Origin: Actinomycetes bacterium
Lineage (GTDB): Bacteria; Actinomycetota; Acidimicrobiia; Acidimicrobiales; Palsa-688
Assembly (NCBI GenBank): GCA_021788115.1
Contig: JAJYLA010000020.1
Location: forward strand, 1-38,938
Length of the DNA: 38,938 nt
Direction of reading: 5' to 3'
Position 1 is the first letter of the stretch, and every line of letters begins with the position of its first letter. Position numbers and translations under genes: made by a program. Of this stretch, positions 1 through 5,140 are shown piece by piece. The notes beneath the pieces were generated by a model. The model was given only the letters and a program-made list of their open reading frames with translations. It was not told the DNA's origin and did not search any database.

Positions 1-250
1 ATCTCGCGGTACTCAGGCTGCGATCCGTGCCGGACTCTGCCGTTGACCAGGACAAGCTCCATCTGGATGGTCACTCCAGAAGAGCCACACCCATTTCATT
101 TCGGAGAGCGCGCATTCCGCGCTGCCAGTCGACTGGTCCAGGGTGCGATGGCGTGGACGCCCGTGGTCGTGTTCTGACTGTCGGCGTAGCGCTTAAGAGG
201 GAGGGCGATCTGGATGGCGATTTTGTTCTCGGGGTTACGCTGGTGGACCG

Positions 251-856
251 ATGGAAGTGATCGGGTTGCGGGTCATCACGGAGGCATTCGCCCACGCGGT
301 CGAGGTGGTAGATGCTCGGCGGCCGCGGGCCGTCAGTAGCCGTACGGGGGCGTCGTATCAACCTGGGATCGGTCCTCACCCCGAGTCGCAGGCGGTGCGT
401 CTGGTGACCACAGAGATGGCAGCCGACCAGACGTTCATCGGTCAGCTAGACGTTCCATACCCCGGCGGGGGCAGACAGCGCTGCGACTGGTGTCTCGGCG
501 CCCCACCCGAGTGGTCGTGGGCGATCGAGGTCAAGATGCTGCGACTCATGGGGGACAACAACAAGCTCAACGACAACATGCTGATGCACATCTTGTCGCC
601 CTACCCTGCGCACCGCAGCGCGCTCACCGATTGCGCCAAGCTCGCCGCCAGCGGCCTCGGACGTCAGCGTGCCGTGATGATCTACGCCTTCGAGTACCCC
701 GATTGGCCCGTCGCACCCGCTGTTGAGGCCTTCGAGCTGCTCGCTGCTCGCCTAGTGGCACTCGGGCCTCGCCATGCTGCCCCTTTCCAGCATCTGATCC
801 ATCCGGTCCACCGGCATGGGTACGTCTTCGGGTGGGAAGTGGGCGGCCCACGATGA
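251..856 (+). CDS. Putative PD-(D/E)XK nuclease-like protein, coupled to the SBD-HNH nuclease
   Basis: This 201-residue protein belongs to no family I recognise with certainty. An acidic residue at D79 followed by E93-V94-K95 on a hydrophobic strand (WAIEVKML) resembles the D...(D/E)XK metal site of PD-(D/E)XK nucleases. No transmembrane segment or signal peptide is seen. The ATG at 251 is the only usable start, because an in-frame TAA lies at 194 with no ATG or GTG between. Its stop overlaps the ATG of the next gene (ATGA at 853-856), so the two are almost certainly co-transcribed and translationally coupled. Since the partner looks like a restriction enzyme for phosphorothioated DNA, I infer that this protein is a nuclease subunit or accessory factor of the same system. 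The nuclease call rests on one short motif. Confidence 0.6.
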   Translation: MEVIGLRVITEAFAHAVEVVDARRPRAVSSRTGASYQPGIGPHPESQAVRLVTTEMAADQTFIGQLDVPYPGGGRQRCDWCLGAPPEWSWAIEVKMLRLMGDNNKLNDNMLMHILSPYPAHRSALTDCAKLAASGLGRQRAVMIYAFEYPDWPVAPAVEAFELLAARLVALGPRHAAPFQHLIHPVHRHGYVFGWEVGGPR

Positions 857-1773
857 CCAGCCAGACCTGGGTTCAGCGGGTGACGACGCTGAATCAGTGG
901 CGACGAGGCGGCGAGCGGGCTCCGCACAAACCCCTACTGTTGTTGTACGCGCTGGGGCGGCTCCAACAGACCGGCTCCTCCTCCATGAGCTTCGCCGACG
1001 CTGAGGCGAACCTGCGCCGACTCCTCGAGGAGTTCGGCCCTCCCCGGACCACCAGCCCCGGATACCCCTTTCACCACCTGACAACAGACGGCCTCTGGAT
1101 GGTGCGCACCCCGTCGGGACCAGGAAGCCCCGGCCCGAATCTCGGTCGACTTCGTGCTGGTGCCACCGGCGAGTTGGCGAGAGACTTCGCCCAAGCCGTG
1201 GAGCGCGACCCGCGCCTGTTCGCATTCGTGGTCCGGGCCATCTTGGACACCAACTTCCCGTCGACCCTCCATGAGGACATCTTGGACGCGACCGGTATCT
1301 CCCTCGGAACCGCCGAGTTGAGCGAGGCTCCCGTGCTGGCGACGATGCCGAGGCGGCGCGACCCGGCCTTTCGGGAACGGGTGCTTGTGGCCTACGAATA
1401 CCGCTGCGCTGTCTGCGGCTATGACGGCCAACTGCAAAGGGAGGCGGTCGGACTGGACGCCGCCCACATCCGTTGGTGGGCAGCCGACGGGCCCGACGAG
1501 ATAGCCAACGCCATCGCCGCCTGCTCGTTCCATCACAAGCTGCTCGACCGCGGTGCGATCGGGCTCACGGTGGATCACAAACTGACCGTGTCCAGCCATT
1601 TCCTTGGCCGGAGCGCCATGGCGGAGACTCTCGTACTGTCCGTCATTGAACGCCCGCTCTTGGCTCCTCAGCTCGGACAGCCTCTGCCCCATGACCAACA
1701 CATCGCCTGGCACGCGGCGCAGGTGTTCCGGGCGCCCGCCCGGCTCGCTCCGGGCGCGCCCGGTGCCCCCTGA
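853..1773 (+). CDS. Phosphorothioated-DNA-binding HNH restriction endonuclease (ScoMcrA-like)
   Basis: This 306-residue protein probably cuts DNA carrying phosphorothioate backbone modification (type IV restriction). Residues 1 to about 150 resemble the sulfur-binding domain: an RGGERAPHKPLLLLYALGR segment, then LLEEFGPPR, a YPF block and a DGLW block. The C-terminal HNH domain has a C185-x2-C188 knuckle, H205 in AAHI, N219 and the H227-H228 pair in FHHKLLDRG. This is the order of a complete beta-beta-alpha-metal site. The ATG at 853 is chosen for its ATGA overlap with the upstream stop; an in-frame ATG at 832 would lie inside the upstream gene. No dnd or ssp modification genes are in the window, which fits an enzyme that attacks foreign modified DNA. 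Family identity is from motif recognition; specificity is unknown. Confidence 0.8.
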   Translation: MTSQTWVQRVTTLNQWRRGGERAPHKPLLLLYALGRLQQTGSSSMSFADAEANLRRLLEEFGPPRTTSPGYPFHHLTTDGLWMVRTPSGPGSPGPNLGRLRAGATGELARDFAQAVERDPRLFAFVVRAILDTNFPSTLHEDILDATGISLGTAELSEAPVLATMPRRRDPAFRERVLVAYEYRCAVCGYDGQLQREAVGLDAAHIRWWAADGPDEIANAIAACSFHHKLLDRGAIGLTVDHKLTVSSHFLGRSAMAETLVLSVIERPLLAPQLGQPLPHDQHIAWHAAQVFRAPARLAPGAPGAP

Positions 1774-1951
1774 CTATCAACTCCGAGGATCGTCGCTGGG
1801 CAAGGCCGCGCCGGACAGAGTACAGCCCGAGGTGCCTGGTTGCATCCGCCGGGCTGACTCCGATGCCGGACTCTCGGTCGCTCATTCTGCTCAGATCAGA
1901 CGGCGCTGGTGAGCCGGTGGCTGGACGGCCAAGGTTTGGGGCGCCGCCGAC

Positions 1952-2984
1952 TTGAATAGGTCTGTCGCGGCCAGGTTCTCGGCACAGTTCCTGGCGGCGC
2001 GGGGCCGGCCGTTGGGGTCCTTGGCGTTGCGGCCGCTATCGGACTGGCTGGACGACCAGGGTGTGCTCGGGACCGATCCTCTGGCGGCGAGGGGACCGCT
2101 CGATGCGCTGATGGACGACCACCGGCAGTGGATGGTGCGGAGCGGTCCCTGTCGGCACGGACGGTCGGCGGCTACGAGGAGACGGCCAGGCGCCTGTTGG
2201 CGGCCAGGGCCGAGCAGTCGAGCGGTTCGGGCGCCGAGGGGCTGACCGCGGGGGCGGTGACGGCGTTCCTGCTGGGCAAGGCGCGTCGGGGTTTGGCTGC
2301 GGGCTCGCTGCAGGGCCGGGTGGCCGAGCTTCGATCTCTGTTGCGGTTCTTGCACCAGCGAGGCTTCGTCGGCCCGGGGCTGGCCGAGGCGGTGCCGCCG
2401 GTGCCGGGATGGAAGGCCACCGGGGTGCCACCGCGGATGGCGGCCAGGGACGTGAGGGCACTGTTGGACAGTTGTGACCGGTCGGGTGCGACGGGCAGGC
2501 GGAACTTGGCCATGTTGATGCTCATGGCCCGTCTGGGGCTGAGGGCGGCCGAGGTGGCCGGCCTAATGTTGGAAGACATCGACCGGCGGTCAGGGGAACT
2601 GGTCGTGCACGGCAAGGGTGGCCCGATCGACCGGATGCCGCCCCCGGCAGACGTGGGAGACTCCCTGGTCGCCTACTTGGCTGACGGGCGTCGCCGGCTT
2701 GGGTGGCGCAACGTGTTCGTCGCCTCGCTGGCCCCTATACGCCGCTAGGTTCCACCACGGTGAGCGAGATGGTACGCCGCAACTGCGAACGAGCCGGGCT
2801 GGGCCCTCTTCGGGCGCACCGGCTGCGCCACGCACTGGCCACCGATCTGCTCGATCGAGGAGTGCGTCCGCCCGAGATAGCCCAGGTCCCCCGACAGCGG
2901 GACCTGGCCACCACAGCTGTCTATGCCAAGGTCGACCGCGCCGCTCTTCGGGAGCTGGCCCTGCCTTGGCCGGTGGCCGGGTGA
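1952..2984 (+). pseudogene. Tyrosine recombinase/integrase, disrupted by two frameshifts
   Basis: Three consecutive frames together give one phage-type tyrosine recombinase. The first, up to about 2135, ends in an SAM-like N-terminal piece (DDHRQWMVR). The second (about 2128-2748) carries RSLSARTVGGYEETARRLL, the catalytic Arg in RLGLRAAEVAGL and the GKGG lysine turn. The third (about 2740-2984) carries the HRLRH box and the Tyr of TTAVYAKVD. The frames change near 2130 and near 2740. The usual LGH motif before TTxxY reads PRQ here, so the second catalytic histidine is Gln. With the frameshifts, this indicates an inactive relic. It lies directly downstream of the nuclease pair and probably marks a decayed mobile element. 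Confidence 0.8.
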
Positions 2985-3113
2985 GCCCGCTCGAGCAGGG
3001 TGTGCTGATCCGTTACCGCGACGGGGCGCGGCCGGCCGTTGACTCCGAGGACCACCGGGCGCCGGCTCGCCTCCGGCGCCGTCCCCGCGCCCCGGTCGCG
3101 AACCGCTTCGGCA

Positions 3114-4127
3114 TCACCGGGCGCCATCGCCCGAGGTCCCCTCGAGGAGGGCGGCGCCGTTGCCGCCGAGGATTCCCTCGACGGTCTGCGCCGGCAACCC
3201 GGACTCCCTCAGATCGCGCACGAACGTCGCCAGGGCGTCGGCGGTGCGGATCTCCTGCGGGTAGTCGCTCCCGAAGACGATCCGCCCGGCGGGGATCTCG
3301 GTCAGCGCGGCGCGGACGGCCTTCACGCTGCCGAACACGCCACCCGTGTCGAAGTAGAGATTTCGCTCGAAGTACTCGTCGAACGGTCTGGCGGCGACGC
3401 GGGTGTGGGCGGACTCCCCGCGCAGGCCCATGTGCTCCTTGTCCTGGTAGCCGCGGATCCGGTGAACGACGGCCGCTATCCCTCCTCCCAGGTGCGACAT
3501 CACGACCCTGAGGTCCGGGACGCGGTCGAAGACGCCGCCGGCGATCAGCCGGTACGTCGCGAGCACGAGCTCGTGCTCGCGACCGACGCAGCGGTACAGG
3601 TCGTAGCGGTCGTAGTACGCCTCGAGTCCCCTCGGCACGGCCAGGGACGGGTGCACGAAGACGAACAGCCCGAGCCGGGCGATCTCTTCGAAGACGGGCA
3701 GCTGGAGCGGATCGTCGAGCGGGCACGAGGCGAAGCTGGTCGGGAAGGCGACACCCGGAAAGCCGTACTCCCGGGCGCACCGTCGCAGCTCGTCCACCCA
3801 GCGCCCGTCGGTGGGATCCACGTGGGCCAGCGGCCGGAAGCGGCCCGCGTGGGCCCCGGCGACCTTGGCCAGATCGGCGTTGATGTGCTCGCACACCTCC
3901 TGGGGGGCGCCCATGCCCGCTCCGCTGGAGAGGACGGCGACGTCGACGCCGGCGGCATCCATGCACTCCAGGTGGCGCTCCAGCCGGAAAAGCCCCTCGT
4001 GCTGGGTGTAGCTCGGGATGCCGCCGGCGTACACGACGGCGGGGGCGCCGCTCGCGTCGAGCTGCGGACGGACGATGTCCTCGGGGGTGTAGTGAACGTG
4101 GAAGTCGAGCACCCTCGTCACGTTCAC
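3114..4127 (-). CDS. Amidohydrolase family 2 protein (ACMSD/gamma-resorcylate decarboxylase-like)
   Basis: This is a 337-residue TIM-barrel metal enzyme of the amidohydrolase-2 group, whose members hydrolyse or decarboxylate cyclic acids. Visible metal-site motifs are HVH near residue 9, FVHPS, VMSHLGGG and the final Asp in FGSDYPQ, so the site looks complete. The GTG start at 4127 overlaps the stop of the upstream binding-protein gene as GTGA, and the HVH motif follows at once; the open frame extends further upstream but overlaps that gene. It is the last gene of the leftward operon, after the ABC importer, so it probably acts on the imported compound or an early intermediate. Hydrolase and decarboxylase roles cannot be separated from sequence alone. 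Confidence 0.85.
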   Translation of the reverse strand: MNVTRVLDFHVHYTPEDIVRPQLDASGAPAVVYAGGIPSYTQHEGLFRLERHLECMDAAGVDVAVLSSGAGMGAPQEVCEHINADLAKVAGAHAGRFRPLAHVDPTDGRWVDELRRCAREYGFPGVAFPTSFASCPLDDPLQLPVFEEIARLGLFVFVHPSLAVPRGLEAYYDRYDLYRCVGREHELVLATYRLIAGGVFDRVPDLRVVMSHLGGGIAAVVHRIRGYQDKEHMGLRGESAHTRVAARPFDEYFERNLYFDTGGVFGSVKAVRAALTEIPAGRIVFGSDYPQEIRTADALATFVRDLRESGLPAQTVEGILGGNGAALLEGTSGDGAR

Positions 4128-5140
4128 GAGCCCAGGTGGGCGACCAGGGAGTTGAGGTCGACCGGCTTCGACAGGAGGCCGAAGCGGAGGGCGGCCGTCT
4201 CCCACACCTTCAGGTCGGCGACGCTCAGCTCGGTGGTGACGTCCGGCAGGTTGATCACCTTGGCGAGCTGGGCGGAGATCTGCGTGTACTTCGGCAGGAT
4301 CTGGCGCAGATAGTCGGGGTGGGCGGCGAGGTAGGAGCCGGCGTCGTTGAGGGCGGTCACGAAGCCCTTCGCCGCCTGCTCGTGCGAGCTGAGCCAGCTC
4401 GAGCTGACCAGCCAGCAGCTGTACAGAGGCGTCGGCGCGATCGCCTGGTAGGGCCGCGGATCGAGGAGCTTCGCCCCGGCGTTCAGGCTGATGGTCGTGA
4501 AAGGCTCATCGGTGATCGCCGCGACCACGTCGCCCTTCTGGATCTCTGCCGGCATGTCCGGGAAGTTGACCGCCACGAAGTGCACCGACGACGGGTCCCC
4601 GCCGTGCTTCTGCATCCACGCCTCGGCCACGAGCTGGTTGATGTTCTGCAGGGTGTTGACGGCGATGCTCTTGCCGTCGAGGTCCTTCGCCGAGTTGATC
4701 TCGCCGGCGTACTTCGGCGACACGAGGAGTGAGAGGTTGTGCCCGGTGGCCGGCTTCTTCAGCGTGCCGGCGAGGCACTTGACGCCGAAGTTGTGCTCGC
4801 CGGCCTGGAGCACCGACACGAGGTTCGAGAAGCCGACGTTCATCGCGCCGGACTCGAGCGCGGGGATCAGAGTGGCCCCGCCGGCGATGGTGGCCGACGT
4901 GACCGACAGGTGCTCTTGCGCGAAGAAGCCCTGCGCCTCGGCCGTGAAATACTCCCCCGTGTCGGCTATGGGGATGAGCCCGACGGTCAGGTGCTCCGTC
5001 GTCGCCGTGGTCGCCGCCGTGCCGGCCGGCGTCGACGGCTGCGATCGCGTCTTGGTGGAGGCGCTCCCGCACGCCGCGAGCGACGCGAGCGCGGCGGCCG
5101 CCGCGAGGATGCCGATGGATCGGTGGAATCGTGACATCAT
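4124..5140 (-). CDS. ABC transporter substrate-binding lipoprotein, NMT1/SsuA/TauA-like
   Basis: This is a 338-residue periplasmic-type binding protein. It has a lipoprotein signal: a basic start, an Ala/Leu-rich core and the lipobox LAAC with Cys24. The mature part begins with a Ser/Thr-rich linker and then TVGLIPIADTGEYFTAEAQG, typical of the NMT1/THI5-like family that binds sulfonates, pyrimidine precursors, aromatic acids and related small molecules. The start ATG at 5140 follows GGGAG at good spacing. It lies after the ATPase gene with a 64-nt gap and overlaps the amidohydrolase start by GTGA. I infer that it captures the substrate of the IclR-controlled pathway. The ligand cannot be assigned from sequence. 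Confidence 0.9.
   Translation of the reverse strand: MMSRFHRSIGILAAAAALASLAACGSASTKTRSQPSTPAGTAATTATTEHLTVGLIPIADTGEYFTAEAQGFFAQEHLSVTSATIAGGATLIPALESGAMNVGFSNLVSVLQAGEHNFGVKCLAGTLKKPATGHNLSLLVSPKYAGEINSAKDLDGKSIAVNTLQNINQLVAEAWMQKHGGDPSSVHFVAVNFPDMPAEIQKGDVVAAITDEPFTTISLNAGAKLLDPRPYQAIAPTPLYSCWLVSSSWLSSHEQAAKGFVTALNDAGSYLAAHPDYLRQILPKYTQISAQLAKVINLPDVTTELSVADLKVWETAALRFGLLSKPVDLNSLVAHLGS

What the first reader, a model, noticed from the sequence alone, without database searches (positions are those of the whole stretch)
251..1773. Two-gene candidate system: PD-(D/E)XK-like protein coupled to a phosphorothioate-reading HNH nuclease
Seen: an ATGA overlap couples the two genes; the second has an SBD-like N-terminus and a complete HNH site (C185, C188, H205, N219, H228); the first has D79 and E93-x-K95. 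Known: ScoMcrA-type SBD-HNH enzymes cut phosphorothioated DNA and are usually described as single proteins. Inference: the upstream protein is a second nuclease or specificity subunit, making this a two-component type IV system.
Basis: partly seen in the sequence, partly recalled or inferred. Interest (0 to 1): 0.72.

Follow-up and report, generated by a model that had tools for sequence, protein, structure and literature searches.

The report
Nuclease-like gene beside phosphorothioate-reading HNH nuclease
A known kind of enzyme that is predicted to cut sulfur-tagged foreign DNA shares an operon here with a small, undescribed nuclease-like protein whose relatives sit beside many other restriction enzymes, so the two look like separate defence nucleases bundled together rather than one dedicated two-part machine.

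Summary
In detail: ORF1 (251-856, 201 aa) and ORF2 (853-1773, 306 aa) overlap by ATGA. ORF2 is a standard SBD-HNH phosphorothioate-dependent enzyme (NCBIfam NF045808, 315 bits against a cut-off of 180; sulfur-pocket HK/YP and HNH residues invariant). ORF1 matches no Pfam, NCBIfam, PADLOC, PHROG or PDB entry, but has homologues in haloarchaea (33 of 292 genomes) and, rarely, in bacteria. E45, D79, E93 and K95 are conserved in essentially all 43 homologous loci. A confident AlphaFold model (pLDDT 89) shows strand and helix order fitting a PD-(D/E)XK core; fold-library matches are weak. ORF1 is not a dedicated SBD-HNH partner: none of 10 other SBD-HNH loci in the phylum has it, and none of 11 other ORF1-bearing genomes has an SBD-HNH above cut-off. 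Relatives instead adjoin SRA-HNH, AspBHI-type, HNH or GIY-YIG nucleases, or, in two distant same-class relatives and one broken copy, C5-methyltransferases as in type II R-M loci. Haloarchaeal ORF1 neighbourhoods hold such nucleases in 12 of 26 cases against 0 of 40 same-genome controls. Best reading: an undescribed restriction-type nuclease, co-transcribed with but mechanistically separate from the SBD-HNH enzyme.

The parts
251..856 (+). ORF1: 201-aa PD-(D/E)XK-type nuclease candidate of an undescribed family
   Evidence: 43 homologous loci; AlphaFold model pLDDT 89.4, pTM 0.87
383..385 (+). codon of E45 (start of helix 45-57), invariant
485..487 (+). codon of D79 (strand 77-82), invariant catalytic candidate
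527..535 (+). codons of E93-V94-K95 (strand 90-98), the (D/E)-x-K element
853..856 (+). ATGA start/stop overlap coupling the two genes
853..1773 (+). ORF2: 306-aa SBD-HNH phosphorothioate-dependent restriction endonuclease
   Evidence: NF045808 315 bits, cut-off 180; PDB matches to the SBDs of ScoMcrA and relatives
925..930 (+). codons of H25-K26, equivalent to the HR/HK pair of the sulfur-binding domain
   Evidence: HR/HK and YP as sulfur-recognition residues in PMC7461809
1063..1068 (+). codons of Y71-P72, aligned with Y164-P165 of the ScoMcrA sulfur pocket
   Evidence: PMC6224610 abstract
1405..1566 (+). HNH nuclease domain (C185, C188, H205, N219, C224, H227, H228)
   Evidence: PF13391, 28.4 bits against cut-off 21; invariant columns

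Best explanation
The two genes form a small co-transcribed restriction unit made of two largely independent DNA nucleases. ORF2 binds phosphorothioated (PT) DNA through its sulfur-binding domain and cuts nearby with its HNH domain; the host shows no PT-making gene, so only incoming PT DNA would be hit. ORF1 is a catalytically competent PD-(D/E)XK endonuclease of restriction-enzyme lineage (E45, D79, E93, K95) acting on its own target, probably as a homodimer. Relatives of ORF1 occur alone, as likely R proteins beside C5-methyltransferases, or bundled with other modification-dependent nucleases. Shown: gene order, ORF2 family and key residues, ORF1 conservation, its varied neighbours, and no cytosine-C5 methyltransferase found in the own assembly. 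Inferred: catalysis by ORF1, its oligomeric state, its independence of ORF2, and co-transcription. If a cognate methyltransferase is truly absent, ORF1 should be modification-dependent or tightly controlled, since otherwise it would cut host DNA.
For: ORF2: NF045808 at 315 bits; SBD and HNH residues invariant over 7 members. Host lacks PT synthesis as far as seen: the only two PAPS-reductase-family genes look like CysD and CysH. ORF1: E45, D79 and K95 in 43 of 43 and E93 in 42 of 43 loci, and all four in three far relatives. Model pLDDT 89.4 with order alpha-beta-beta-beta-alpha-alpha-beta-alpha-beta-beta after an N-terminal helix; EcoRV is the top Foldseek hit, though at E 5e-3; EcoRV, SwaI, OkrAI and BglII reach Z 5-6. 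Independence of ORF2: ORF1 absent from 10 other SBD-HNH loci, no SBD-HNH above cut-off in 11 ORF1 genomes, no recognised nuclease partner beside ORF1 in the two closest relatives. Restriction context: C5-MTase plus Vsr (PF00145, PF03852) next to the L178 relative and a C5-MTase-like end overlapping the L177 relative; EcoRV-family protein plus C5-MTase before the L043 copy; AspBHI-type enzyme 6 bp upstream in L094; TagI-like SRA-HNH 2 bp downstream in L048; HNH overlapping in L044; GIY-YIG overlapping in three plasmids. Enrichment 12 of 26 against 0 of 40, p = 2e-6.
Against: The ATGA overlap and the repeated pattern 'ORF1 then HNH gene' (window, L044, L048) would also fit a physical complex. 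Fold searches give no significant match, and methyltransferase folds score equally in the second look. The MTase-linked relatives are distant (45-70 bits). The enrichment test used query families taken from ORF1 neighbourhoods of other genomes, and such islands gather defence genes anyway. No activity was measured.
Confidence: 0.52

Rival explanations
1. True two-component type IV system: ORF1 and ORF2 form a complex in which the SBD of ORF2 reads phosphorothioate and both nucleases cut, or ORF1 adds sequence specificity.
For: ATGA overlap; ORF1 relatives directly upstream of other HNH nucleases in L044 and L048, the latter with an SRA-like reader matching TagI; reader-nucleases also adjoin ORF1 in L094.
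Against: ORF1 is missing from all other SBD-HNH loci examined and from 395 of 396 phylum genomes; SBD-HNH above cut-off is missing from the other ORF1 genomes. The partner types are unrelated (HNH, GIY-YIG, AspBHI/Mrr), so no conserved interface partner exists. PMC7461809 reports PT restriction by SBD-HNH enzymes such as EcoWI without naming a partner in the passages read.
Confidence: 0.2
2. ORF1 is the restriction enzyme of an ordinary type II R-M system whose methyltransferase gene lies just beyond the contig start, with ORF2 an unrelated passenger in the same operon.
For: Relatives L177 and L178 in the same class lie next to C5-methyltransferases, one with Vsr; the L043 copy follows a C5-methyltransferase by 19 bp; the contig starts 250 bp before ORF1.
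Against: No C5-methyltransferase in the assembly, about 94% complete; the N4/N6 methyltransferase genes found are on other contigs; the closest relatives in Acidobacteria and most haloarchaeal copies have no methyltransferase recognised beside them.
Confidence: 0.18
3. ORF1 is not a nuclease now but a regulator or DNA-binding guard with a PD-(D/E)XK-like scaffold; some plasmid annotations call relatives 'transcriptional regulator'.
For: That annotation on three haloarchaeal plasmids; no significant match to a solved nuclease.
Against: Near-perfect conservation of all four candidate catalytic residues over 43 loci in archaea and bacteria is not expected for a scaffold that has lost catalysis; no DNA-binding domain family is recognised by Pfam.
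Confidence: 0.1

Closest known systems
SBD-HNH phosphorothioate-dependent restriction endonucleases (NCBIfam NF045808; SprMcrA, EcoWI, Ksp11411I kind)
   Same: ORF2 scores far above the family cut-off, with the sulfur-pocket HK and YP residues and a full HNH site
   Different: ORF2 overlaps an upstream PD-(D/E)XK-type gene. In other members the upstream neighbour varies: PLD-like in L116, helicase in Euzebya, notch-type NTPase in Azospirillum, none recognised in the E. coli, Klebsiella and Methylibium plasmids
PD-(D/E)XK restriction endonucleases such as EcoRV and the EcoRV-family enzyme of locus L043
   Same: E, D, E-x-K order, strand placement and helix-borne Glu; weak in-register profile alignment (P about 0.01)
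   Different: No sequence-level membership in any Pfam family; own conserved elements (G39-I-G, Y70, R98, N103, P117, D127, H184, W195)
Type II R-M loci of C5-methyltransferase plus Vsr
   Same: Two distant ORF1 relatives in the same class occupy the place of the R protein beside a C5-methyltransferase
   Different: No methyltransferase adjoins ORF1 in the window and no C5 methyltransferase was found in the assembly
TagI and ScoMcrA-type SRA-HNH and AspBHI-type modification-dependent enzymes
   Same: Genes of these kinds directly adjoin ORF1 relatives in haloarchaea (L048, L094)

Membership tests
NF045808 phosphorothioated DNA-binding restriction endonuclease (ORF2) | full-length score above the curated cut-off | tested here: met
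   315.1 bits against 180, residues 5-293 of 306
NF045808 phosphorothioated DNA-binding restriction endonuclease (ORF2) | sulfur-recognition HR/HK and YP residues | tested here: met
   H25-K26 and Y71-P72 invariant in 7 members, aligned to ScoMcrA (PMC7461809)
NF045808 phosphorothioated DNA-binding restriction endonuclease (ORF2) | PT-dependent DNA cleavage | not testable with these tools
   needs an enzyme assay
PD-(D/E)XK nuclease superfamily (ORF1) | D-x(n)-(D/E)-x-K motif with a helix Glu, conserved in the family | tested here: met
   E45, D79, K95 in 43 of 43 and E93 in 42 of 43 loci; all four in three far relatives
PD-(D/E)XK nuclease superfamily (ORF1) | alpha-beta-beta-beta-alpha-beta core | tested here: met
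   H45-57 E64-69 E77-82 E90-98 H124-134 E139-147 in a model of pLDDT 89.4; element order only, coordinates were not inspected
PD-(D/E)XK nuclease superfamily (ORF1) | significant structural match to a known member | tested here: inconclusive
   EcoRV top at E 5e-3; Z 5-6 shared with methyltransferase and Schlafen folds
Type II R-M system | cognate methyltransferase in the same locus | tested here: inconclusive
   none seen beside ORF1 and no C5-MTase in the draft assembly, but the contig begins 250 bp upstream of ORF1
   0 of 10 other SBD-HNH loci, 0 of 11 other ORF1 genomes
   needs co-purification and restriction assays

The most novel reading that the evidence does not exclude
ORF1 is a shared second nuclease, itself modification-dependent, that has been combined repeatedly with different modification readers (sulfur-binding, SRA, AspBHI-N, GIY-YIG proteins) in bacteria and archaea, so that the window shows one member of a new class of composite type IV systems.
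Probability: 0.2. Interest if true: 0.65.

Novelty: new variant of a known kind. Interest (0 to 1): 0.42.

Why it matters
It brings to light an unnamed nuclease-like family, found in about one in nine sampled haloarchaeal genomes, that keeps company with enzymes which destroy modified DNA. If active, it is a source of a new restriction specificity. If it needs modified DNA, it adds a second reader to type IV restriction and explains why it persists without an adjacent protective methyltransferase.

Tried and rejected
Viral origin of ORF1: no relative in viral contigs or phage records; the fold search against viral models gave nothing under E 0.001. Named family for ORF1: none in Pfam, NCBIfam, PADLOC, PHROGs or PDB by sequence; a profile search of PDB gave only SfsA at E 0.22, with the D and E-x-K positions in register. 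Host PT-modification genes: only CysD- and CysH-like members of the PAPS-reductase family. A C5-methyltransferase partner elsewhere in the genome: none. A published description of this pair: none found by text search; six papers on phosphorothioate, SBD and HNH were listed and two consulted by term search.

Full report
Observation. ORF1 (251-856, 201 aa) and ORF2 (853-1773, 306 aa) are as described and share the ATGA at 853-856. The window is one whole contig (C49) of a 238-contig draft genome of 3.58 Mb, about 94% complete, and it starts only 250 bp before ORF1.

ORF2. It matches NCBIfam NF045808, 'phosphorothioated DNA-binding restriction endonuclease', over residues 5-293 with 315 bits against a cut-off of 180. 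Sequence matches in the PDB include ScoMcrA, other sulfur-binding domains and TagI. H25-K26 and Y71-P72, at the positions of the sulfur-recognition pairs described in PMC7461809, are invariant in seven aligned members, as are C185, C188, H205, N219, C224, H227 and H228. The host shows no sign of making phosphorothioate: the two PAPS-reductase-family genes found look like CysD and CysH. A role as a type IV enzyme is therefore the established expectation. PMC7461809 reports that fewer than 3.6% of such enzymes may be associated with dnd modification clusters.

ORF1 family. No curated library and no solved structure matches it by sequence. Relatives were found on four haloarchaeal plasmids, in a scan of GTDB genomes (12 loci: Acidobacteria, an actinobacterial MAG, an alphaproteobacterial single-cell genome and haloarchaea), in 33 of 292 sampled haloarchaeal genomes, and, distantly, in three further genomes of the window's own class. 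In the phylum sample the profile found only the own genome, 1 of 396. Over 43 loci E45, G39, G41, Y70, D79, K95, R98 and D127 are invariant, and E93 is missing only in L043, a copy that has lost codons at the motif and is broken further on. The three far relatives keep E45, D79, E93, K95, N103, P117, D127, H184 and W195.

ORF1 structure. An AlphaFold model from an 11-row alignment has mean pLDDT 89.4 and pTM 0.87. D79 lies on strand 77-82, E93 and K95 on strand 90-98, and E45 starts a helix before the three strands, which is the order of the PD-(D/E)XK core. Library searches are weak. EcoRV is the top Foldseek hit at E 5e-3 with a poor TM-score. The second look lists EcoRV, SwaI, OkrAI, BglII, Schlafen and Rossmann methyltransferase folds together at Z 5 to 6.4, which cannot separate them. 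Two weak profile matches place the motif in register: the EcoRV-family protein of L043 (P about 0.01) and SfsA (E 0.22). Nuclease assignment therefore rests mainly on conservation and topology.

Linkage to SBD-HNH. In the phylum sample 11 of 396 genomes have NF045808 above cut-off. The ten besides the window carry no ORF1 relative in their retrieved flanks, some of which are cut short by contig ends. None of 11 other ORF1-bearing genomes has an NF045808 match above cut-off. The upstream neighbours of SBD-HNH genes vary: an overlapping PLD-like protein in L116, an overlapping helicase in Euzebya, a notch-type NTPase in Azospirillum, and none in the Methylibium, E. coli and Klebsiella plasmids. 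The pair in the window is thus one of several combinations.

What ORF1 relatives do adjoin. Overlapping GIY-YIG genes on three plasmids. ORF1, DUF6884, GIY-YIG in L049, L050, L051, L090, L092 and L112. HNH overlapping downstream in an alphaproteobacterium (L044). An HNH protein 2 bp downstream in Haloglomus (L048), whose N-terminal part aligns with haloarchaeal SRA-like proteins and which matches TagI at E 2.6e-6. An AspBHI-type enzyme 6 bp upstream and a NucS-type nuclease about 27 bp downstream in L094. A C5-methyltransferase preceded by an EcoRV-family enzyme in L043. A C5-methyltransferase with Vsr in L178 and an overlapping C5-methyltransferase-like end, recognised by eye, in L177. In many loci, including the two closest relatives from Acidobacteria, no nuclease partner was recognised.

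Is this more than chance? Using query proteins from ORF1 neighbourhoods outside the test set, 12 of 26 haloarchaeal ORF1 neighbourhoods (12.7 kb) hold at least one such relative against 0 of 40 control stretches from the same genomes (Fisher p = 2e-6). This shows residence among restriction genes. It does not show function, because defence genes cluster in islands in general. Two genomes gave two test loci each.

Tree. The window ORF1 groups with the two acidobacterial copies and then the alphaproteobacterial one (support 96/91 and 100/100), apart from all haloarchaeal copies. Neighbour types differ within this small bacterial group (SBD-HNH, none, HNH), which points to exchange of partners rather than one inherited system.

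Mechanism. I favour two co-transcribed but independent nucleases: ORF2 reads phosphorothioate and cuts; ORF1 cuts its own target by metal-dependent PD-(D/E)XK chemistry. The relatives next to C5-methyltransferases suggest a type II restriction-enzyme ancestry. No C5-methyltransferase was found in the own assembly, so the window protein must be modification-dependent, silent, or protected by another kind of methyltransferase or by a gene not assembled. Catalysis, target and independence are inferred.

Verdict. The step to a dedicated two-component type IV system is not. What is new is the uncatalogued nuclease-like family and its varied company.

Noticed in passing
window 1952-2984 (+): Remains of a tyrosine-recombinase-like gene directly downstream of the pair, split between two reading frames; recognised by eye only. 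Suggests a mobile-element setting.
   Followed up: no
L116 906-2048 and 2039-2980: Another SBD-HNH gene of the phylum overlaps an upstream 380-aa gene with a weak PLD-like match (PF13091, 5e-5): a second kind of nuclease coupled to SBD-HNH.
   Followed up: partly
L167 (Euzebya pacifica plasmid) 58-4295; L166 (Azospirillum plasmid) 1-4337: SBD-HNH genes follow large helicase or strawberry-notch-type NTPase genes, the former with a 4-bp overlap: possible multi-gene PT-restriction units.
   Followed up: no
L049, L050, L051, L090, L092, L112: Recurrent haloarchaeal cassette: ORF1 relative, DUF6884 protein, GIY-YIG protein, mostly overlapping. DUF6884 has no known function in this setting.
   Followed up: partly
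L043 6995-7411: The ORF1 relative behind an EcoRV-family enzyme and a C5-methyltransferase has lost codons at the E-x-K motif and is broken further on: probably a dying copy.
   Followed up: partly
haloarchaeal plasmid records: Public annotation names three of four ORF1 relatives 'transcriptional regulator'; nothing found here supports that name.
   Followed up: partly
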